Origin: Bacteroidia bacterium
Lineage (GTDB): Bacteria; Bacteroidota; Bacteroidia; AKYH767-A; OLB10
Direction: 5' to 3'
Length of the DNA: 43,432 nt
Assembly (NCBI GenBank): GCA_016788065.1
Contig: JAEUTI010000011.1
Location: 1-43,432, forward strand
The position numbers and the translations under genes were made by a program. This document shows, in pieces, positions 32,329-43,432 of this stretch (position 1 is its first letter; every line of letters starts with the position of its first letter). The notes beneath the pieces are model-generated. The model did no database searches. It was not told the DNA's origin and saw only the letters and a program-made list of their open reading frames with translations.

Positions 32329-33537
32329 ATGAAACAGGATTTAGAATTCCCACAACAAATGACAAATAAAGAGGGTCAAAATATTGAGATTAACAAAGAG
32401 GAAGCTGTAGAATTTTATAAAAAGTTTTATCGTGACAATTTGTTAAATGTAGCAAATCGAAATAAGGCATTAAATGATTTGGAGCAATTGATCAGAAAGC
32501 ATTCAGTAAATGTTGATAGCAACTTTTTAATAACTCAATATTCCTTTGAATCAGAAGCGGAAGATGTCTTAAAAAAGCACTTTTCTTCGGAAATCCTTCA
32601 AGGATTCAATAAAACCTTTAAGCCAGACTTAGATTTAGCTATTGGTGATTCGAAGAACTTATTGCAACTGTATTTGCATGCCATGGCTTATGAAACAGAT
32701 CTTAAGAAAAGGCAAAACTCTTACAGAATTGAATATTTGAGATTTGTATATGACTGTTTAAATGATTATGGGTTGCATAAATATATTTTAGAAAGAGATA
32801 TAGCATTTAAACGTTATAATGTTGTAGTGCACTATTTTGACACCAATAAATTACGAGACTGTGATGAAAAAATGTTGATAAACTATGACATGCTTAAAGA
32901 AAATTATTTGACCCCATATAAGCAGCAGTTGCCAATAAAGATAAATGGCAAATTGATCTTTTTTAAAGATATAATTAGCATTCAAATTACATCCACATTA
33001 TTAATGGATGATGAAATCTATTTATTGGGTTTAAGGGAAGGTTGGAAATGGACAGAGAAGTCTAAAAACAAATATGGGCTAATATTAGCCTCTTGTGATG
33101 AAACTGACGAATTGACAACTAATCCATTCTTACCAGAATCTTTACCGCATGCTCGCATTTCTCAACAATGCATAAATGAACTTAAGAAATTACAGTCTCA
33201 AGAATATAACTTTAATAAATTGATTTTGCTTTTAGAAGAGTTAAATATGAATATGTCAAAAGGAAACTTTTACAGCGTTTCAATGCTAACCAGAGCAATT
33301 ATTGATCACATTCCTCCATTATTCAATGCAAAAAATTTCAGTGAGTTTGTTGCCAATCTTAAGGGCACATCCTTTAAATCAATCATGACCAAACTTGATC
33401 AAACTTCCAGAAAAATAGCAGATATTAGCCTGCATCAATCTATAGAAAAGAAGGAAATACTACTTACGGAAACACAAGTAAACGTGTTTGCAGAATTAGA
33501 AACCCTAATTAATAAAATTATTTCTGAATATAAGTAA
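32329..33537 (+). CDS. Unrecognised 402-aa island protein
   Basis: Not assigned to a family. It is soluble, AT-rich in codons, with no signal peptide or membrane helix. Three blocks can be seen: a helical N-terminus (20-170); a strand-rich middle with LPIKINGKLIFFKDIISIQITSTLL (about 200-260), reminiscent of a small sensor or binding domain; and a helical C-terminus (about 290-402) with KGNFYSVSMLTRAIIDHIPPLF, TSRKIADISLHQSI and EKKEILLTETQVNVF. I have the impression that the last block (RAIIDHxPPxF ... RxIADxxLH) recurs in accessory-region proteins, but no enzymatic domain is visible. It is convergent with the type III-B operon, 174 bp from cmr6, so it may be an independent defence gene or cargo. 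That gap (33538-33711) holds a 13-bp direct duplication of AATAAGCTTGAAC-like sequence near 33561-33586. Confidence 0.6.
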   Translation: MKQDLEFPQQMTNKEGQNIEINKEEAVEFYKKFYRDNLLNVANRNKALNDLEQLIRKHSVNVDSNFLITQYSFESEAEDVLKKHFSSEILQGFNKTFKPDLDLAIGDSKNLLQLYLHAMAYETDLKKRQNSYRIEYLRFVYDCLNDYGLHKYILERDIAFKRYNVVVHYFDTNKLRDCDEKMLINYDMLKENYLTPYKQQLPIKINGKLIFFKDIISIQITSTLLMDDEIYLLGLREGWKWTEKSKNKYGLILASCDETDELTTNPFLPESLPHARISQQCINELKKLQSQEYNFNKLILLLEELNMNMSKGNFYSVSMLTRAIIDHIPPLFNAKNFSEFVANLKGTSFKSIMTKLDQTSRKIADISLHQSIEKKEILLTETQVNVFAELETLINKIISEYK

Positions 33538-33711: not shown

Positions 33712-34611
33712 TTACTCACTCAATTGACCAAATCCAACATTTGTTTTTGCTCCAATTCCAATAGTTGTTAAGACATGCATGAACAATTTAAGTTTAAGAG
33801 ATGGTGACAGAAGAGAAGAATCTGCAGCCGTATTATCATGTACATAAAATCCAAATCGAAAGCTGATTCCGGGTCTAACTTTAATAAAAGTTATAGGATC
33901 TGGTTCCTTTAGTATTACATCCTGGAGAGGGATTCCTTTTTTGAAATGAGGTGTAATTGTTTCTTTATCAAGAATTTCGGTATTTTTTGTATTCTCAAGC
34001 ATAGCATCAAAAAATACATCTCGTTGATATATTGAAAGTTTATTATCATTTACAATTCCATTAAAAATTTCATTTTCAATCGCAGATATATATTTTTGAT
34101 TCAAAGGATCGCTTCCTGAATTTTTGTCTTTTATGCCATGTATGAAATTTAATAAAAAGAAAGTTTGATTTTCCTTTATCTTTAAGGCTTTGTCTGTTAA
34201 ACGTATCTTTCTTTGATTAGACCAATCGGGAAAAATACTTCTCAGAACTCCTTTGATACTGCTTCCTGGTATATATGGCAAACCTGATGTGTAATCAAAC
34301 GAAAACCCCAATTTAATCTCACCTTTGTACTTAATTTCATGTGAATATCCTGCACCAATTAATAATCCGGGATTAAGAATTTTGAGACAAAAAGACTTCG
34401 AATTATCAAATTGCAAATTTTCGAATAGATTCTTAATAAAAGAGCCATCTACTGAAATGTTGAAAGAACGACTTAAAATCGCCTCATTCTTTTTCTCAAA
34501 ATAGACTTTGTATTTTTCGCTTTTTCGATCACTCAATATTAAAGAAAAGTCGAGTTCTTTATCAGAAAAATATCGAGTATTAAATAACAAATGTAAGTTT
34601 GCGTTATTCAT
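33712..34611 (-). CDS. cmr6: Type III-B CRISPR RAMP protein Cmr6 (Cas7 family)
   Basis: A 299-aa Cas7-type backbone subunit of the Cmr complex. GLLIGAGYSHEI followed by LGFSFDYTSGLPYIPGSSIKGVLRS (about 95-126) is the RAMP core, with the Cmr6 features DVFFDA, ETITPHFKKG and PITFIKVRPG, and a glycine-rich C-terminal loop GIGAKTNVGFGQL. It caps the 3' end of the crRNA in Cmr complexes. It is the last gene of the operon, overlapping cmr5 by 8 bp. No clear terminator follows. Confidence 0.88.
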   Translation of the reverse strand: MNNANLHLLFNTRYFSDKELDFSLILSDRKSEKYKVYFEKKNEAILSRSFNISVDGSFIKNLFENLQFDNSKSFCLKILNPGLLIGAGYSHEIKYKGEIKLGFSFDYTSGLPYIPGSSIKGVLRSIFPDWSNQRKIRLTDKALKIKENQTFFLLNFIHGIKDKNSGSDPLNQKYISAIENEIFNGIVNDNKLSIYQRDVFFDAMLENTKNTEILDKETITPHFKKGIPLQDVILKEPDPITFIKVRPGISFRFGFYVHDNTAADSSLLSPSLKLKLFMHVLTTIGIGAKTNVGFGQLSE

Positions 34612-35020
34612 AATTTTGCAGATTGTATGTTCTTAGAATCAACTTTAGAGCGATACATGCATGAACAATATTGTGTACATGTTGCTCTTTATCAAAATCT
34701 GAAGCAACTTTATAGTTATCAATGAATTTTTCTAAGGTCAATTCACTTTTATTTATAGTAAAGAGTATGGCCTTTAGAACATTATTCGGATCAGCTTCCT
34801 TTTTGCTTGAAGCATGCTTCTTTACAATATTATTCTCGATAGGCTTAGAATACAATATTAAAGTCGGTAAAAGTCCTATTTGGATCAATTTTGGACCAAA
34901 TGCATTGATATAACTTTGATATTCTTTGTTGGTGATCTTTTCGTTTTCAATTATGCCGTATTTTTCAAGTGAAATGTCTGCATTATTGAAAAAGGATTTT
35001 ATAAGGGACTTCTTTATCAT
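34604..35020 (-). CDS. cmr5: Type III-B small subunit Cmr5 (Cas11)
   Basis: A 138-aa, all-helical protein. YQSYINAFGPKLIQIGLLPTLILYSK (about 34-59) is the typical Cmr5 segment. The C-terminal helices (ALKLILRTYNL) agree. Cmr5 copies form the inner filament that runs along the target RNA in the Cmr complex. The start overlaps cmr4 by 4 bp (ATGA) and the stop overlaps cmr6 by 8 bp. Position between cmr4 and cmr6 supports the call despite the short, weakly conserved sequence. Confidence 0.85.
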   Translation of the reverse strand: MIKKSLIKSFFNNADISLEKYGIIENEKITNKEYQSYINAFGPKLIQIGLLPTLILYSKPIENNIVKKHASSKKEADPNNVLKAILFTINKSELTLEKFIDNYKVASDFDKEQHVHNIVHACIALKLILRTYNLQNYE

Positions 35021-35865
35021 AGTGAATCATATAAACATAGTTTACACCAGCCATAGCCAATTGATGCATTAGCTCCAATTTGCACAATTGGATTAGATTT
35101 CAAGGTTTTTTCGAACGCATTGCATTTAGATTCATATGAAATAAAGCTATAAAAATGCGTGTATCGAGGCAATACCTGCTCATAAAATAGATTTTTACTT
35201 ATCCCGTGATCTAAATTGTTTCTAGCAATAAATGGTAAATTATAGTCATTTACTCTTCGAGCCAGATTGGAATGGTTGACCAATATTAAATTACCCCCAA
35301 ACAGTAATTCAATTTCAGGGGTAATATCAAATGAATTAGGCCTTGTGATGATGATATCTTCTGCAGTATTGTTTGTTAGATTCTCTGCAGATGGGCTTAA
35401 TTTTAAACCTTTATTCAAATCAATTTCTTTTAAAGAAAGCTTATGCAGAACATCCATCATTTTTTCATTGACAGGGAAGTGAAATAGTTTGGTTTGTTCA
35501 AGAAATGAGATTATTAATTCCGGGCTGGTCGCATTATAATATGGGTATGAATCACCACGGTAAGGAAATGAAAGTAATGTTGCTTCCTGAAAATAGTAGT
35601 TACCACGTTTCATCAGTTCAGTTTTCGCTTCATTTCTTTCTGAACCAAAGACAGCTATAAGATCTGCTTCAGGAAACTGTCTATTTGCTACTTCGAAATT
35701 TATCCTTTCCCTCAGAGCGCCCTTCAACCCGGAACCCGGAATACCAGGTAAATTAGTCGTAAAATCACGATAAATGAGATTGTCGATTATTCCTGAAGAT
35801 TCTGAGCCTGAACCAACATGAAGATTAGCCTGATTAACGATACTAACTAATTGTGAATGAATCAT
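35017..35865 (-). CDS. cmr4: Type III-B backbone and target RNase Cmr4 (Cas7)
   Basis: A 282-aa Cas7 subunit that polymerises along the crRNA and cuts target RNA every 6 nt. NLHVGSGSESSGIIDNLIYRDF (14-35) is the Cmr4 N-terminal motif; D28 corresponds to the catalytic aspartate of the family, so RNase activity is expected. LPGIPGSGLKGALRERI (39-55) is the RAMP core, and IGANASIGYGWCKL the C-terminal glycine loop. It overlaps both neighbours by 4 bp (ATGA). Confidence 0.9.
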   Translation of the reverse strand: MIHSQLVSIVNQANLHVGSGSESSGIIDNLIYRDFTTNLPGIPGSGLKGALRERINFEVANRQFPEADLIAVFGSERNEAKTELMKRGNYYFQEATLLSFPYRGDSYPYYNATSPELIISFLEQTKLFHFPVNEKMMDVLHKLSLKEIDLNKGLKLSPSAENLTNNTAEDIIITRPNSFDITPEIELLFGGNLILVNHSNLARRVNDYNLPFIARNNLDHGISKNLFYEQVLPRYTHFYSFISYESKCNAFEKTLKSNPIVQIGANASIGYGWCKLCLYDSL

Positions 35866-36980
35866 ATTTTTTCTAATGTAAATTGATTATAACCAATAAG
35901 TGAATAAGCTGGGTGAGCTTCAATCAGCCTGATGGCTTCATTTAGGACGCTGCCGTGAATATAAAAAACCGAACCAGAGTCATAAAATGTTTCTTTACCA
36001 CCTTTAAAAGCGGTGTTCAGATCATCCTTTTGAGCAAGCCCGGCATAATTAATCGTTTTCGTGGAAGTACGAATATTCCTAAAATGAATTAGGCTACTCA
36101 TACCGCCTTTAACGTAGTTCATGAATTCAGAACCTACTTTCAATGGACTTATAGCTGTCAATCTGTAATCTTCATTCATATCATAGTTTTCTTTTGAGTT
36201 TTCAATTCTTTCATCATCTAAAGAGCATTCACGAACTTCAAAACTAAACAAGCTACCTTCACCACCAACTTTACATATAAATTTGCCCAAGTGAGATAAT
36301 CTTTCACTTAATACTATGTCAACTCCAAATGAAAAATTAGAAAGAAGCTTAACAACTTCTTTTTTGAAATAGCCATCAAGAGGTTCATCGGAAAAAGTGT
36401 TTTTTGCATTTGATGTGATTGTAAATCGTTTAAAAATATCCTGCTCAGTATAAAAATAAGTTTTGTTTTTATTTGTCCAAATCTTGCCAAAGTAGTACTG
36501 TTTATGATTAAAGTTAATATTTGAAACAGTTTCTTTTCGAAGAACTTCATTTACTGAAGACTCATATGCATTTGTTTCAGTAATTAGATGAGCAATGTTC
36601 TGGTTTGGATTTGATTGGAAGAAATCTTTTCTAAGCGGAGTAAGTTTAACAGCTTCTTGCGAATTTTTATTCTTATGAAGTATATATACTGGGCTTAATT
36701 TTCTAATTATTCCAAATGAATCGTTTCTCCCATTGAATGAAGTTGGTCCAATGAGAAAATCAGGTGAATTGGAAATCAGATTAATGTCAATAAACCCGTT
36801 TAGAATCGCATACCTAAGCGTACCGAGGATCGTTGTTTGCTGAGGCAGCAACATTGAACGAACGAAATAATTTTCTCTTCCACCATCAGCAGGGTTATAA
36901 CTGGACTCACCTCCAAAAAAGTAGTGCGAGATGGGTTTGATTTCACATTGGTATATGAATTGTTTAGTTGTCATTTTCAT
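35862..36980 (-). CDS. cmr3: Type III-B subunit Cmr3 (Cas5 family)
   Basis: A 372-aa Cas5-type subunit that holds the crRNA 5' handle and contacts Cas10. The N-terminal IKPISHYFFGGESSYN and LPQQTTILGTLRYAILNGF match Cmr3 (dispensing with the RAMP loop but keeping the FFGG and TxxGxLR elements). SPLKVGSEFMNYVKGGM and the C-terminal SLIGYNQFTLEKI also fit. The ATG at 36980 overlaps the end of cas10 by 17 bp; a second ATG lies two codons later at 36974, and an in-frame TTG at 36995 is less likely. Confidence 0.85.
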   Translation of the reverse strand: MKMTTKQFIYQCEIKPISHYFFGGESSYNPADGGRENYFVRSMLLPQQTTILGTLRYAILNGFIDINLISNSPDFLIGPTSFNGRNDSFGIIRKLSPVYILHKNKNSQEAVKLTPLRKDFFQSNPNQNIAHLITETNAYESSVNEVLRKETVSNINFNHKQYYFGKIWTNKNKTYFYTEQDIFKRFTITSNAKNTFSDEPLDGYFKKEVVKLLSNFSFGVDIVLSERLSHLGKFICKVGGEGSLFSFEVRECSLDDERIENSKENYDMNEDYRLTAISPLKVGSEFMNYVKGGMSSLIHFRNIRTSTKTINYAGLAQKDDLNTAFKGGKETFYDSGSVFYIHGSVLNEAIRLIEAHPAYSLIGYNQFTLEKI

Positions 36981-38493
36981 CCAATCCCTTAGCAAAATTA
37001 ATGTATCTTAATAAATTATAAGTCAATTCTAGACTGCTTTTTAACTCGCCTTGTTCTTTTAGAATAATTTCGTTTAAGAGAACTGTTGAACTTTCTAAAT
37101 ATTTGTTGGATGAGTAATCCTCAATATTATTTTTAAAGAAGTTAGTACGTCTGTTGAAATTGACACCAATATATTCATGCAAATCACTAAATTCATGTAA
37201 ATTATGTATGAAACTATTAAGTAAATTATCCTTATTTGCAAATTTGAGGGTATCAAGAAATTTGGAATAAATAGCAGAATTGGGATCAAGTGAAAATTGA
37301 AACTTTCTTCCGGAATGCTTCCTCACAAGAATATTAAGGTGATTTACTTTCTTATTAAACTTCATCTCTGCAAGTAATTCATGGGCATTTATCAATGCCT
37401 CAGCTAAAGGGAATTTATAATAGAAGATGCTGATCCCAAAGGAAATCCCTAAGTCCGGCATGTTCTTTGAATTCACAGTGATTTTAAACTCCCTTTGAAT
37501 TATTTTGCACAGTTCAATAATATCGGATCCATTACTTACAATTGGTGAGACAAATAAGAGGTCGTCACCACCTACATAAATCGGGACTGCTGAAAATTCT
37601 TTTAAAATATTGTAGGTATAATTTGACCAATTGAACATAGTCTCTGAAAACTTTAACTTTTCTACATCATTTAGTGTTGATAGATAATTACCAACGCCAT
37701 CTGCATCTGCAGTTACAATTGCTACATATTTATGGTGAGACTTTATAACATTTTGCTGTACTAGATTTTTTAATTCTTTGAAAAATGAATTATCATTTTC
37801 TTCATTTGAATTAAAAAAGTACTTATTAATCAAGCTGCTTTTGTCTTGATTTGGAAGATTATGAAGCAAAGATGCGGTTGCTATTTCAAGCAAGCTTGGA
37901 AAGCGGTCATCTTGTTTAGTTTTATATTGCGATTTGAAAAATTCAGTATCTGGCAGTTTGTTAAATAATCTTTGAAGAAAACGATTTTCGTCAAATTCAA
38001 TTATCCGGTTTTCAAGATCAGCCTGTTGGAGCAAATCTATAACACGGCTAATGTTCTCATGCGATGAATTGATAGAATTGGTATTAAGTAAGTCGTCAAT
38101 ATTTAATTTGATAGAATTTACTCTGAAATATTGTTGCGAAAATTTCAATGCCTCATCAAAATTAATTAAACCCGGAACCTGAATTAATGATGCATAATTT
38201 ACCAAGACAGATTCGATAATGGATCGAACAATGTCAAGTTTCAGGTCAGATTTTGATGCTACTATTAATCTGTCCGGGTATGTACCAACTCCTTTTTTAG
38301 AACCTTCCTTTAATATTTCATGATTTGGCAAGATGAAGATTATTGAATCTCCATATTTTATTGTTAATTCGTTACAAATAGATTTCATCAGAAATGAAAA
38401 GGTGTATGAACAAAACCAAAGTTCACGAAGGCGACGGGCACTTCCAAGAAAACGTGTAATTGGACCAATTGTAATTCCTAAGTAATATGTCAT
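36964..38493 (-). CDS. cas10: Type III-B Cas10/Cmr2, HD-less with GGDD cyclase
   Basis: A 509-aa large subunit. It starts straight in the Cmr2 palm-like region (YYLGITIGPITRFLGSARRLRELWFCSYTFSFLMK), with no upstream HD nuclease domain and no HD motif. The catalytic palm has TADADGVGNYL (D263, D265) and YVGGDDLLFV (G308-G309-D310-D311), so the nucleotidyl cyclase site is intact. On target RNA binding it should make a nucleotide second messenger. In Cmr loci with CorA that product is known to be SAM-AMP, and the CorA gene here points the same way. No zinc-binding cysteine cluster of the usual type is obvious. It overlaps cmr1 by 4 bp and cmr3 by 17 bp. Confidence 0.93.
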   Translation of the reverse strand: MTYYLGITIGPITRFLGSARRLRELWFCSYTFSFLMKSICNELTIKYGDSIIFILPNHEILKEGSKKGVGTYPDRLIVASKSDLKLDIVRSIIESVLVNYASLIQVPGLINFDEALKFSQQYFRVNSIKLNIDDLLNTNSINSSHENISRVIDLLQQADLENRIIEFDENRFLQRLFNKLPDTEFFKSQYKTKQDDRFPSLLEIATASLLHNLPNQDKSSLINKYFFNSNEENDNSFFKELKNLVQQNVIKSHHKYVAIVTADADGVGNYLSTLNDVEKLKFSETMFNWSNYTYNILKEFSAVPIYVGGDDLLFVSPIVSNGSDIIELCKIIQREFKITVNSKNMPDLGISFGISIFYYKFPLAEALINAHELLAEMKFNKKVNHLNILVRKHSGRKFQFSLDPNSAIYSKFLDTLKFANKDNLLNSFIHNLHEFSDLHEYIGVNFNRRTNFFKNNIEDYSSNKYLESSTVLLNEIILKEQGELKSSLELTYNLLRYINFAKGLDENDN

Positions 38494-39623
38494 GCCCTTG
38501 AATAAATTAGTTTGTAGTGTTTAGCAAGATTCATTTCTAAAAATTCTTTCAAATCAAATTCACCGCTTCCAGGAGCATAAATTGAGTCAAATTTTACTGT
38601 TTTAAACTCATATCGACTTTTACTCAAAACATCGAATTTAAATTCATTTGCAAATATGCTCTTATGAATTTCCCTAACTAATATATATATATTGTTGTTA
38701 ATCAATTTATAAGTAAGAGGTGATGGGAAGCGCTCTATTTTATTATTCGCATCTCTTACTCCTATTTGAACTTTATCTCTAGACTTAAGAATGCGGTATT
38801 CATATTGATTAGGCATACCGAGCAGTATTCGTACAAATGCATATTGCAATTTATCTTTTTCAATTGTATTTCTGAAATGATTCTTAGATATAAGACTCAA
38901 AAGGTTTTTCTTTGAAAAGGATAAGTATATAAAATCTTTTTCCCAATAAACCGGCGGTCTTTTTGAAATGAAATATTTCTGTATTGCAGATTTTTCTCTC
39001 TTAGCTAAATCTTCAGATTTCAGAGCTTTGTATTGACTTAATGTTAACTCAAAAAACGGAATAAAGGAATTATTTGGAGTTAGATTCGCAATTGCTGACC
39101 AGCATAAAAAATATTCATTTGAGTATGCAATGGCTTCTACAAATTTACTTTCCTCAAAGGTAACATCTACTCCATCAATTTTCGATACAGTAAAGCTTCC
39201 AAATCCTTTCGTTTTTCGATTTCCAAAATTATTGCACATGTAGAACCCCGGAATATAAACTTTTATGGCATCAATTAGTTCGCTAAAATAGGATATGATT
39301 TCGAGTTGAATGATTTTGTAAATAAAACCGGAACCTTCACCAAAATAGTTACCCAGAATTTGTTTTGGAGTTTGGTTTCCTTTTTTCTGTGTTGAAATTT
39401 TGAATTCTTCATGTTGTTCACATTTGATTCTTAATTTGTAATTTAGCGCTTTGTTATTCTCTTTGTCGATAAACCAATCTTCTTCAATATTTTTTATTGT
39501 TTTGAGAAGCCACCTATCCAAAGCTGGTTTGATTTCACTTGCGCGCAAACCATTTTCGGGCACGCTTGATTTAGAATGAATTAGCGGTGTATGTTGTTTG
39601 AGATGTATAGTTGTTTTAAACAT
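38490..39623 (-). CDS. cmr1: Type III-B RAMP protein Cmr1 (Cas7 family)
   Basis: A 377-aa protein. The N-terminus TIHLKQHTPLIHSKSSVPENGLRASEIKPALDRWLLKTI is a RAMP core as in Cmr1 (TPL followed by LRxSxIKxALRxW). NNFGNRKTKGFGSFTV is the basic glycine-rich loop (about 130-145). Cmr1 sits at the head of the Cmr complex near the crRNA 3' end. The sequence is diverged: the loop has Asn where Arg/Gly are common. It begins 2 bp after the CorA gene and overlaps cas10 by 4 bp. Confidence 0.82.
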   Translation of the reverse strand: MFKTTIHLKQHTPLIHSKSSVPENGLRASEIKPALDRWLLKTIKNIEEDWFIDKENNKALNYKLRIKCEQHEEFKISTQKKGNQTPKQILGNYFGEGSGFIYKIIQLEIISYFSELIDAIKVYIPGFYMCNNFGNRKTKGFGSFTVSKIDGVDVTFEESKFVEAIAYSNEYFLCWSAIANLTPNNSFIPFFELTLSQYKALKSEDLAKREKSAIQKYFISKRPPVYWEKDFIYLSFSKKNLLSLISKNHFRNTIEKDKLQYAFVRILLGMPNQYEYRILKSRDKVQIGVRDANNKIERFPSPLTYKLINNNIYILVREIHKSIFANEFKFDVLSKSRYEFKTVKFDSIYAPGSGEFDLKEFLEMNLAKHYKLIYSRA

Positions 39624-39625
39624 TT

Positions 39626-41218
39626 CTATTTGTTTAAGAATTTGTTAATTAGGATCGTGATTAAAGTCGCAATCACTGCCCATATGGTAACCACAGCAAA
39701 TCTGGATATATCGAAATTGGTAAATGAAAGAACTTTAATGTCATCAATGAACCATGCAAAAAATGAAATTAATACCGATGCCGGCAGAAATTTACTCGCT
39801 ATTCTGTTTAGCACTTTAGATTCATGATTCAGCACAAAACTTTTCAATTCTTCAACTTCGGCTTTTAGCATTTTAGCATCTTCCGGAATTCCCATTTGAT
39901 TTTGTAACAAACTATAAAGTTCCATTCCTTGTAATTGTGGTGTTACCTGCCTGAAATAAATGCGATTAATAAAGATTAAATAGTTTTGGTGTAATTCTTC
40001 AATCAGATCTATTAGATCTCTCTTTAACCTAATTTTTCCTTTATTTCTCTTTTCTTTAATTTTCCCGGCAATAATTTGAACCTCACTTGAATACGAAACT
40101 ATTGACCCATATTGAACCAATGAAAGCAAAACCATTTGATAATATTGATGTGTGAAGTGTTTCTTTATGAAATCTTCATTAAAATTTACTTTTTCACTTA
40201 CCAATAAAACAAAAGAATACGGTGTTATGCCATATAATTGACTTGGCCCATCGGAATCTAACCACCTTTCGTAAGTTGCTGATTTATTTAGTTGTTTCAA
40301 AAAAGATTTCCCCTTACATGAAACTTGATTACCGTCTATATAAATCAATTTATGCCATTCGGGATCTGTTGTGTATTGATATTCATTAGTTGAATCTGAC
40401 CATAATTTTAGTTTGTTTATGAGTGGGTCATTTTCAACACAGCACATTGTAAACATTCTATCATCACTAATTGGGTATAAATTGATTTTACGTTCAGGAT
40501 TCAGCGGATTGAACGATTCTCCTAGTAGGCCGATGATATAATTTGGTAAGCAATTTATATTTTTCCCTAATGTTTCGATATTATCAAAATCCGTGAAACT
40601 ATCCTCAGTTGACAGTAGACTGTTGAATTTAAAGGCTATATTTGAGGCAAGAAAGTTGGACTTTATCGGTTGGGTTAATTTGTTGGACACTTTTTCAGGA
40701 TCTTCCGCTGTATTATCAAGGTATGCAGGATACACCCTTCGAAATACATCATTAAAACATCTGATCTCATCCAAATTTAATATTTCGGAATTTTCAAGAA
40801 AAAAAGAGATTACTCCAACTCCGGAGGAAAAGAAATTGACATGCACAGCTGTTAGACTTATTGACAATTGGGTAAGCTTTTTCTCTTTTTCGATCTGAAT
40901 CGTAACTGATGAATCCTTATCTAATTTTGCTATGTACCGGCTGCAATCGGTAATATTTTCATTTTCGCTATGTCTTAGCACATCGTGAGTGAAACGATAA
41001 AAGTATCGCAGTTCATTGTAAGGGTTAAATAATTTTGCAGTTTCGCTGTTGATTGCAAATTTATATGGCTCGAGGGATGAAGCTTTATCCAGTATTTCGG
41101 AAATCGTTTCAATATTTTTCCGAGTGTTGAAAGAACTGGTTTTACGCTCGCTGATAGGCTGTTCTACATCCCATGTAAAACCGAATAAAAATATATGTGA
41201 ACTGTTTGTTTTTTTCAT
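39626..41218 (-). CDS. corA: CRISPR-associated CorA-like membrane effector
   Basis: A 530-aa protein with a large soluble N-terminal part, a long helical stalk (about 420-475: LQNQMGIPEDAKMLKAEVEELKSFV) and two C-terminal membrane helices at about 477-491 and 507-525. This is the CorA fold, but the GMN motif between the helices, needed for magnesium selectivity in transporters, is absent (the loop reads FAWFIDDIKVLSF). Membrane proteins of this kind are the SAM-AMP-gated effectors of Cmr systems, for example in Bacteroides fragilis; binding is thought to disrupt the membrane of infected cells. That role is inferred here from architecture and position. It overlaps the exonuclease gene by 4 bp and sits 2 bp before cmr1. 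Confidence 0.78.
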   Translation of the reverse strand: MKKTNSSHIFLFGFTWDVEQPISERKTSSFNTRKNIETISEILDKASSLEPYKFAINSETAKLFNPYNELRYFYRFTHDVLRHSENENITDCSRYIAKLDKDSSVTIQIEKEKKLTQLSISLTAVHVNFFSSGVGVISFFLENSEILNLDEIRCFNDVFRRVYPAYLDNTAEDPEKVSNKLTQPIKSNFLASNIAFKFNSLLSTEDSFTDFDNIETLGKNINCLPNYIIGLLGESFNPLNPERKINLYPISDDRMFTMCCVENDPLINKLKLWSDSTNEYQYTTDPEWHKLIYIDGNQVSCKGKSFLKQLNKSATYERWLDSDGPSQLYGITPYSFVLLVSEKVNFNEDFIKKHFTHQYYQMVLLSLVQYGSIVSYSSEVQIIAGKIKEKRNKGKIRLKRDLIDLIEELHQNYLIFINRIYFRQVTPQLQGMELYSLLQNQMGIPEDAKMLKAEVEELKSFVLNHESKVLNRIASKFLPASVLISFFAWFIDDIKVLSFTNFDISRFAVVTIWAVIATLITILINKFLNK

Positions 41219-41760
41219 GATTCTGTGCTCATCAACTCAAAATAACACTCTTTTAGTAACATTGCATCGTAATAAGCGTGATGGAGTTTTATACCGTGAA
41301 TGCTTTCGGGAAAACTACTCAAACTATTTCTGCTGATATCCGTGGTTCCATTCCTGGCTAATATCATAGAATTCAAATCTATTGGAAACGGAGAAATATA
41401 TTCTGGTAAGTTCGGTTTAAAACAAGGTAATTTGAAAAAAAATTTCCAATCATAATAGGCGACATCCGTGACTATTGTAACCTTGTAACTATCATCCTTA
41501 TAACTTTCAATAAATTCGTATACACTCCTTGCTATTTGATGATAATTTCCACGAACACTTATTAAAGTATCAACTATTGTGGGCAAGTTTCCAAGCTGAG
41601 GAATTACATTTTGGTATACAAAATCTGAGCATGTATTTTTATTAAAATCATCACACTCGCCATAGAACCCATTGCCTGCTTCATCAACCAAAGCAATAGA
41701 AATTAGTTCCGACTGGAAGGTCAAATTTGTGAATTCCGTATCAAGAAAAATTAAAGTCAT
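41215..41760 (-). CDS. DEDDh 3'-5' exonuclease, CRISPR-associated
   Basis: A 181-aa single-domain exonuclease of the DnaQ/RNase T fold. Catalytic residues: D7 and E9 in IFLDTEFT (ExoI), D99 or D104 in TDVAYYDWKF (ExoII), and H160-x4-D165 in LHHAYYDAMLL (ExoIII). It is the first gene of the effector operon and is coupled to CorA by a 4-bp ATGA overlap. Other Cmr-CorA loci have a phosphodiesterase (NrN) or SAM-AMP lyase in this place to remove the messenger. By position this enzyme is a candidate off-switch; it could instead trim crRNA 3' ends or degrade viral nucleic acid. A consensus promoter lies 20 bases upstream. Confidence 0.85.
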   Translation of the reverse strand: MTLIFLDTEFTNLTFQSELISIALVDEAGNGFYGECDDFNKNTCSDFVYQNVIPQLGNLPTIVDTLISVRGNYHQIARSVYEFIESYKDDSYKVTIVTDVAYYDWKFFFKLPCFKPNLPEYISPFPIDLNSMILARNGTTDISRNSLSSFPESIHGIKLHHAYYDAMLLKECYFELMSTES

Positions 41761-41909: not shown

Positions 41910-42479
41910 ATTGCAACATCAACGAAGGTCGGCCTCTTTTGGGACTGTGGCGTGCAATAAAATACAAAAGTTTCACCCGTCTCAACAGCTACGTAGGTCA
42001 GTCCCTTCGGGGACAAACCAACTATATGAAAAAAACAATTACAATTTTGTCTCAAAACCAATGTAGGTCGGTCCCTTCGGGGACCGTGTTGTTCTGGTAA
42101 AGGTTGTAAAATAGTCTCAACACCTACGTAGGTCGGTCCCTGCGGGGACGGTAGTGCATTAGTGCTTCGCAAATGTAAATCGTCTCAACACCTACGTAGG
42201 TCGGTCCCTTCGGGGACGCGGAATATTCACGTTGGTATCAAAAACATGGGTCTCAACACCTACGTAGGTCGGTCCCTTCGGGGACATTTTAGTAATGGGT
42301 TTGCGTTACTTGGTAGTCTCAACACCTACGTAGGTCGGTCCCTTCGGGGACAACCAACCGAATAACTAAAAATTGAGAAGTCTCAACACCTACGTAGGTC
42401 GGTCCCTTCGGGGACAATTATTTCACATAAAATCAAAAATTATGTCTCAACACCTACGTAGGTCGGTCCCTTCGGGGAC
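41910..42479 (-). CRISPR. CRISPR array 1: nine 36-bp repeats, eight spacers
   Basis: Repeats start at 41910, 41979, 42049, 42114, 42182, 42250, 42316, 42380 and 42444. Spacers are 28-34 bp. As written on plus, the repeat begins GTCTCAACAC, has the palindrome CCTACGTAGG, and ends with the hairpin GTCCC-TTCG-GGGAC. The repeats at 41910 (about 10 changes), 41979 (2), 42049 (3) and 42114 (1) are decayed; the last five are identical. Decay marks the old, leader-distal end, so the array reads on the minus strand. The crRNA 5' handle would then be GUUGAGAC. The cas operon starts 150 bp beyond the decayed end. Confidence 0.96.
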
Positions 42480-42485
42480 TCTTGG

Positions 42486-42518
42486 CAAATATATGAATTG
42501 TATTTCAATATATTACAA
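42486..42518 (-). promoter_or_regulatory. Leader promoter of CRISPR array 1
   Basis: On the minus strand TTG (42518-42516) and TATATTTG (42493-42486) are 22 bases apart; transcription would start at about 42479-42481, the edge of the first repeat. The 116-bp AT-rich segment between cas2 and the array (42480-42595) is the probable leader. This supports minus-strand transcription. Confidence 0.55.
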
Positions 42519-42595
42519 GGGTAAAATTCAGAAACCAACCTTATCATTTCAAAATAAATCATATCAACTGCAGGTTCTGAATGAACTTTTTATTT

Positions 42596-42865
42596 TCAAC
42601 TAATATAGTGGTGATCATCATCATTATCAAGCTTATCTGAATTGTAGCCGTAAGCGAGTTTTTTAGCATTAGCATCAAGTATAAAGATTCGAATATTACT
42701 AATCTCAAAATTCAATTTCTCAACTTCTGTAATTAAATTACGTAATTGGGATTCTGAAATCCTGCATTGAAATACTCTTTTCTGAATTCTAAAACCAAAA
42801 CCGGAAATCACCTTATCCGCTGCAGTGCGCTCCTTATCATTTGTAATATCGTAAACAACGAGATA
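42596..42865 (-). pseudogene. cas2: cas2 without a start codon
   Basis: From 42865 the minus strand reads YLVVYDITNDKERTAADK, then VISGFGFRIQKRVFQCRISE, to ILDANAKKLAYGY and a TGA at 42598-42596. This is a near full-length Cas2 (89 residues), including the conserved Asp of VVYDI and the RVFQCR strand. The codon before the first tyrosine is TAA, where ATG is expected, and no ATG, GTG or TTG precedes the catalytic strand. The first usable start, GTG at 42811, would remove that strand. Cas2 is the structural partner of Cas1 in spacer acquisition; this copy is probably not made in working form. It lies between the two arrays, with a cas1 remnant just upstream. Confidence 0.8.
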
Positions 42866-42909
42866 TTAACCGACTCCTCAGAAACCGATTGTATTTTGAA
42901 TATATCTGT

Positions 42910-43106
42910 TCAAATTTTCCATTGAATAAAAGTTAGCGATTGAAAATCTTTAGCCCAACGTTTTTCTATCAGTGCTTGACAATAAATTTGTTCTTTCCAA
43001 ATGAGTTCAGATCTGCACATTTTTCGATTAAGTTCAGCTTCAAATTCCAATAGGAATTTCCTTCAGCCTTTCATCCGAAGCTTTTTACCATATGTTTTTT
43101 AAAGCC
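42910..43106 (-). pseudogene. cas1: C-terminal remnant of cas1, frameshifted
   Basis: Two frames on the minus strand carry pieces of a Cas1 C-terminus. From 43106 one frame reads GFKKHMVKSFG, then TGA, then KAEG. The adjacent frame continues RKFLLEFEAELNRKM and, to its TGA at 42912-42910, QIYCQALIEKRW and FIQWKI. FEAELNRKM and a terminal aromatic-rich segment are typical of the Cas1 end. The 5' part is missing: the fragment begins exactly at a decayed CRISPR repeat. About 45 bases separate it from cas2, as expected for an old cas1-cas2 pair. The assignment is from pattern memory. Confidence 0.62.
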
Positions 43107-43432
43107 GGAACACCTACATAGGTCGGTCCCTTCGGGGGCACGATACGATTGATATTTCTTACTAACATAGTCTCAACACCTACGTAGGTCTGTCCCTTCG
43201 GGGACATTTCCAAAGATGTTGGAAGTAAGCTCAAAGTCTCAACACCTACGTAGGTCGGTCCCTTCGGGGACTATATACTATGAAAAACTTCCTCTTAATC
43301 CTAAGTCTCAACACCTACGTAGGTCGGTCCCTTCGGGGACATTCGTAGTTATATCCATGTTGGTATCAAAGTCTCAACACCTACGTAGGTCGGTCCCTTC
43401 GGGGACTATATACTATGAAAAACTTCCTCTTA
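43104..43432 (-). CRISPR. CRISPR array 2: five repeats, cut by contig end
   Basis: The repeat is the same as in array 1; copies start at 43104 (decayed, first five bases changed), 43170 (one change), 43236, 43305 and 43371. Spacers are 30-33 bp, and the last one is cut after 26 bases by the contig end. The decayed copy abuts the cas1 remnant, so the leader lies beyond the window to the right and the array reads on the minus strand. The final 67 bases (43366-43432) repeat 43231-43297 exactly, including the start of the spacer at 43272. Confidence 0.95.

What the first reader, a model, noticed from the sequence alone, without database searches (positions are those of the whole stretch)
42596..43106. 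Dead cas1-cas2 pair stranded between two arrays
Cas2 is nearly full length but its start position is TAA. Upstream lies a cas1 C-terminal scrap with a stop and a frameshift, and its 5' end stops exactly at a decayed repeat of array 2. This suggests a deletion or recombination that joined an array to the interior of cas1, leaving a locus that can defend but not acquire spacers with its own genes.
Basis: partly seen in the sequence, partly recalled or inferred. Interest (0 to 1): 0.7.

Follow-up and report, generated by a model that had tools for sequence, protein, structure and literature searches.

The report
Leftover cas1-cas2 between two CRISPR arrays
Between two CRISPR arrays lies the dead tail of an old spacer-capturing gene pair, but a complete replacement pair sits at the far end of the second array, so this bacterium has probably not lost the genes to record new infections: a tidy scar of CRISPR evolution rather than a crippled immune system.

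Summary
In detail: window 42596-43103 (minus strand) holds a dead cas2 and the last ~50 codons of cas1 between two arrays with the same 36-nt repeat. One detail is wrong.

The locus is not without adaptation genes. The window is a contig that ends inside array 2; its last 80 nt are the first 80 nt of contig C92, found at no other place in the genome. There array 2 continues (27 repeats in all) to a near-identical leader, an intact cas2 and an 876-aa Cas6-RT-Cas1 fusion.

The dead pair is 84% identical to that module, with low dN/dS (cas1 tail 0.11, cas2 0.24). Simulation rejects a copy truncated from birth, so it is the remnant of a once-functional second module, cut by recombination or deletion. 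Leader 1 stays 59/61 identical beside the array, so the intact enzyme could probably still use array 1. Three other RT-Cas1 loci carry comparable scraps between arrays. Ordinary parts, informative scar.

The parts
42596..42922 (-). cas2 pseudogene: ATG present, TGA at codon 15 and TAA at codon 19, own stop at 42598-42596
   Evidence: Cas2 profiles 7.5e-12 and 8.8e-13 when read through; 75% aa and 84% nt identity to the intact Cas2 on C92
42910..43062 (-). cas1 C-terminal scrap (last 50 codons plus stop of an RT-Cas1), open frame, no catalytic residue
   Evidence: 86% aa identity to the last 50 residues of the genome's RT-Cas1; dN/dS 0.11
43063..43103 (-). junction stretch with stop codon(s) and only weak in-register similarity to cas1
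42480..42540 (-). leader of array 1, array-proximal part (59/61 identical to the leader of array 2, 36/36 next to the repeat)
41979..42479 (-). CRISPR array 1: 8 repeats of 36 nt, plus a decayed repeat at about 41910-41945 (10 mismatches); leader-proximal five repeats perfect
43104..43432 (-). CRISPR array 2, distal end; terminal repeat decayed; continues into contig C92 (27 repeats in all)
43353..43432 (.). 80-nt overlap with the first 80 nt of contig C92, which carries the rest of array 2, leader 2, intact cas2 and intact Cas6-RT-Cas1
41215..41760 (-). DEDDh-type 3'-5' exonuclease of the type III-B operon
   Evidence: RNase AS 2.4e-11, below the curated cut-off; PADLOC DEDDh 1.7e-6
39626..41218 (-). 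CorA-like membrane effector
   Evidence: PADLOC CorA 1.9e-92
33712..39623 (-). cmr1, cmr2 (cas10), cmr3, cmr4, cmr5, cmr6: type III-B effector complex

Best explanation
[quoted passage not shown] Shown: the order is cmr genes - CorA - exonuclease - array 1 - leader 1 - dead cas2 - cas1 tail - array 2 - leader 2 - intact cas2 - intact Cas6-RT-Cas1 (the last part on an overlapping contig). Inferred: two modules that had diverged while both were functional (an old duplicate, or a related module gained by recombination) came to lie in tandem. Recombination or deletion at the distal end of array 2 removed most of cas1, RT and cas6 of one copy, and its leftover cas2 then decayed. The living Cas6-RT-Cas1/Cas2 processes crRNA and adds spacers at leader 2. 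Because leader 1 and the repeats of array 1 are almost unchanged, it probably also serves array 1 in trans. The Cmr complex uses guides from both arrays.
For: Intact Cas6-RT-Cas1 and Cas2 in the same genome. Unique 80-nt contig overlap. 84% nt identity over leader, cas2 and cas1 tail. dN/dS 0.11 and 0.24; a copy neutral since divergence gives as few replacements as observed in fewer than 1 of 400 simulations for either gene. Array-proximal leader 59/61 identical against 269/321 in cas2 (Fisher p = 0.005). Array 1 keeps five perfect leader-proximal repeats and unshared spacers. Scraps of cas1 or cas2 ahead of a second array in three other loci (L056, L106, L114); the L106 scrap is 77% identical to a homologue in another record but 65% to its own locus's RT-Cas1. 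Survey data: same-repeat arrays in one genome acquire spacers at comparable rates (PMC12814883).
Against: The join of C95 to C92 rests on an 80-nt overlap inside an array, not on reads. No close relative of this locus was found, so the order of events and the donor are unknown. The cas1 test uses only 50 codons, and the block was chosen where homology is clear. Use of array 1 by the intact enzyme is not shown. Conserved leader sequence could also reflect gene conversion between the two leader-array ends.
Confidence: 0.75

Rival explanations
1. Single tandem duplication: a segment running from the distal end of the array through leader and cas2 into cas1 was copied in tandem, so the copy was truncated at birth and has decayed ever since.
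For: It gives exactly the observed order in one step. A short fresh copy of this kind (cas2 3' end, leader, array; 94% identical) exists in L056.
Against: The cas1 tail has dN/dS 0.11 and no stop in 50 codons, cas2 0.24; a copy neutral since divergence should carry about 24-28 (cas1 tail) and 42-48 (cas2) replacement changes, while 8.5 and 27.5 are seen. cas2 alone could have stayed functional for a time, but a truncated cas1 tail could not.
Confidence: 0.12
2. One reading: deletion left the locus without its own working adaptation genes; array 1 and array 2 are static.
For: The window alone shows no working cas1 or cas2.
Against: An intact Cas6-RT-Cas1 and Cas2 lie beyond array 2 on the overlapping contig.
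Confidence: 0.05
3. Assembly artefact: the dead pair or its junction is a chimera of two strains.
For: The contig ends inside an array; draft assembly of 97 contigs.
Against: The junction lies in unique sequence (decayed repeat); the two leader ends share only 72 identical nt in a row, less than the 80-nt contig overlap; the alternative wiring would need a closed circle; L056, L106 and L114 show the same kind of structure in unrelated assemblies.
Confidence: 0.05
4. The cas1 tail or cas2 remnant still makes a useful peptide (for example a decoy of the integrase), which is why it is conserved.
For: Low dN/dS in the window and in the open scraps of L106 and L114.
Against: cas2 carries two early stops; the tail lacks every catalytic residue; low dN/dS is explained by divergence before truncation, as L106 suggests.
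Confidence: 0.03

Closest known systems
Type III-B CRISPR-Cas with Cas6-RT-Cas1 (Marinomonas mediterranea MMB-1; Thiomicrospira structure 7KFT)
   Same: RT-Cas1 fusion with an N-terminal extension, separate Cas2, cmr effector genes, two arrays at the locus (MMB-1 has CRISPR02 and CRISPR03: PMC5576922); 7KFT is the best solved match (3.3e-46)
   Different: A dead cas2 and cas1 tail between the arrays; CorA and DEDDh genes present; only distantly similar fusion protein
CorA-containing (SAM-AMP) type III-B systems (Bacteroides fragilis; Streptococcus oralis and Syntrophothermus lipocalidus with a DEDD nuclease)
   Same: cmr genes with corA next to a DEDD-family phosphodiesterase gene; RT-Cas1 adaptation known in the group (PMC10600005)
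   Different: Signalling molecule not tested; Cas6 probably fused to RT-Cas1 here
Multi-array RT-Cas1 loci with adaptation-gene scraps: L056 (Deltaproteobacteria MAG), L106 and L114 (Chlorobiaceae)
   Same: 3' scrap of cas2 or cas1, then a leader copy and a second array
   Different: Unrelated sequence sits at the scrap's 5' edge there (about 0.4 to 1.7 kb between first array and scrap); in the window the scrap runs to the array within about 37 nt
Truncated cas1 in Bacteroides fragilis type I-B loci
   Same: Array beside cas2 and a truncated cas1 (PMC5704556)
   Different: There most of the operon is gone; here an intact module remains

Membership tests
Type III-B CRISPR-Cas | cas10/cmr2 with cmr1, cmr3-cmr6 | tested here: met
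RT-associated CRISPR adaptation module (Cas6-RT-Cas1 + Cas2) | one protein with RT (YADD) and Cas1 domains, Cas2 next to it | tested here: met
   PF00078 2.8e-24, PF01867 3.6e-53, Cas2 PF09827 1.3e-16; VRYADDF and Cas1 E/H/D-E positions
RT-associated CRISPR adaptation module (Cas6-RT-Cas1 + Cas2) | N-terminal Cas6 domain | tested here: inconclusive
   876-aa length; alignment to 7KFT begins at residue 228, in the glycine-rich end of the Cas6 part; Pfam Cas6 not detected
RT-associated CRISPR adaptation module (Cas6-RT-Cas1 + Cas2) | spacer acquisition from RNA | not testable with these tools
   needs an in vivo assay
cas1/cas2 pseudogenes | sequence homology with disabling lesions | tested here: met
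CorA / SAM-AMP type III-B | CorA effector beside a SAM-AMP-degrading enzyme | tested here: inconclusive
   CorA and DEDDh genes present; the signal and enzyme activity were not tested

The most novel reading that the evidence does not exclude
Adaptation modules of RT-Cas1 CRISPR systems are regularly exchanged by recombination that uses the arrays as joints. Each exchange leaves a readable scar, the 3' end of the displaced cas1 or cas2 with its leader and old array, so the old memory is kept and stays writable by the new enzyme.
Probability: 0.3. Interest if true: 0.55.

Novelty: new member of a known kind. Interest (0 to 1): 0.33.

Why it matters
Read from the contig alone, the locus looks unable to learn; with the next contig it looks complete. 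That is a warning for annotating CRISPR loci at contig ends. The scar also gives a test of how CRISPR loci get second arrays and swap integrases: old leader and array kept, old integrase discarded.

Tried and rejected
Search for close relatives with RT-Cas1, and for the repeat or RT-Cas1 in 395 genomes of the class: none, so the intact ancestral order could not be compared directly. Plasmids and phages: no match. The viral scan for a motif shared by one spacer of each array gave nothing. A first, too divergent RT-Cas1 alignment could not be used for scanning. One Pfam scan used the wrong frame for the cas2 remnant and found nothing; repeated in frame. A single truncated-at-birth duplication was my first model and was dropped after the dN/dS and simulation results. 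Pfam Cas6 in the genome: none. Promoter and terminator scan of 42400-43200: no more promoter-like sites than in shuffles.

Full report
What was claimed. A dead cas1-cas2 pair at 42596-43106 between two arrays, cas2 starting with TAA, cas1 a C-terminal scrap with a stop and a frameshift ending at a decayed repeat, and hence a locus that can defend but not acquire.

What is there. The repeat GTCTCAACACCTACGTAGGTCGGTCCCTTCGGGGAC forms array 1 (41979-42479, 8 repeats plus one decayed copy further out) and array 2 (from 43104). Between them, on the minus strand, lie a cas1 tail and a cas2. The cas2 remnant matches Cas2 profiles and is 75% identical in protein to an intact Cas2 elsewhere in the genome. 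Its ATG at 42922-42920 is present and overlaps the cas1 stop by 13 nt; TGA at codon 15 and TAA at codon 19 break it. The cas1 tail, 50 codons in one open frame, is 86% identical to the end of the genome's RT-Cas1. The stretch from there to the decayed repeat contains a stop and shows only weak in-register similarity to cas1 (17 of 37 nt); whether there is a frameshift there cannot be decided.

The window is a whole contig. It is C95 of a 4.26-Mb, 97-contig assembly. The repeat occurs only on C95 and C92. The last 80 nt of C95 are the first 80 nt of C92, and this 80-mer is found in full only at those two ends. C92 continues array 2 to 27 repeats in total, then a leader, an intact cas2 (108 aa) and an 876-aa RT-Cas1. 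The latter has RVT_1 and Cas1 domains, VRYADDF, and the Cas1 catalytic positions. Its best solved relative is the Cas6-RT-Cas1 of 7KFT, with the alignment starting in the glycine-rich end of the Cas6 part. It is the only Cas1-family match in the genome. So the claim that the locus lacks its own acquisition genes fails.

How old and how formed. Leader, cas2 and cas1 tail of the two copies align at 84%. Nei-Gojobori dN/dS is 0.11 for the cas1 tail (50 codons) and 0.24 for cas2 (105 codons). In simulations a copy unconstrained since divergence never (0 of 400) gave so few replacement changes; an unconstrained share of up to about a quarter of the branch fits the cas1 tail, and up to about half fits cas2. 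The two copies therefore diverged mostly as functional genes; truncation is later. The limits are the short block and the choice of its edge where homology is clear.

Leader 1 is kept. The 61 nt next to array 1 are 59/61 identical to those next to array 2 (36/36 nearest the repeat), against 269/321 in cas2 (Fisher p = 0.005). Array 1 has five perfect leader-proximal repeats and its own spacers; one of them shares 18 of 20 nt with a spacer of array 2 (sequences). [quoted passage not shown] I infer, without proof, that the intact enzyme also serves array 1.

Recurrence. A second genome scan gave 78 loci encoding relatives. Loci with two or more arrays often carry a copied leader. Three carry a scrap of the adaptation genes between the arrays: L056 (cas2 3' end, 94% nt identity with its leader), L106 (79-residue cas1 tail, 65% identical to the resident gene) and L114 (33-residue cas1 tail, 97%). 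The L106 scrap is closer to homologues in other records (up to 77%) than to its own neighbour (65%), which points to replacement of one module by another. In L056 and L114 the scraps look like more recent copies. Both routes thus seem to exist; the window, with 16% divergence and low dN/dS, resembles L106 more, but no relative is close enough to prove it.

Setting. The operon next to array 1 encodes Cmr1-6, a CorA-like protein and a DEDDh exonuclease, the gene set described for SAM-AMP signalling type III-B systems, some of which use a DEDD nuclease (PMC10600005). Marinomonas mediterranea MMB-1 likewise has two arrays at its RT-Cas1 type III-B locus (PMC5576922).

Verdict. Real pseudogenes, correctly spotted, with the start codon misread and the functional conclusion overturned by the neighbouring contig.

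Noticed in passing
window 43272-43304; C92 (L022) 55-87 and 192-224: One 33-nt spacer occurs three times in array 2, alternating with others (the copy at the window's end is the C92 55-87 copy); this repetition probably caused the contig break. Independent re-acquisition or internal duplication.
   Followed up: partly
window 42218-42249 and 43341-43370: A spacer of array 1 and one of array 2 share 18 of 20 nt in shifted register, as if taken from the same variable target; the viral collection has no exact match to the shared motif.
   Followed up: partly
window 33712-41760: Type III-B operon with CorA and a DEDDh exonuclease: candidate SAM-AMP signalling system with a Cas6-RT-Cas1 adaptation module.
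   Followed up: partly
window 32329-33537 (+): 402-aa protein next to cmr6, opposite strand, no match in Pfam, NCBIfam or PADLOC.
   Followed up: no
L106 14204-15890: Between the arrays, ORFs that look like an AbiE-type toxin-antitoxin pair (recognised by eye, not tested) sit ahead of the cas1 scrap.
   Followed up: no
genome G000 versus same genus and class: The repeat and this RT-Cas1 were absent from the 395 sampled genomes of its class, and a close Cas2 from the one same-genus genome searched, suggesting horizontal gain of the whole system.
   Followed up: partly
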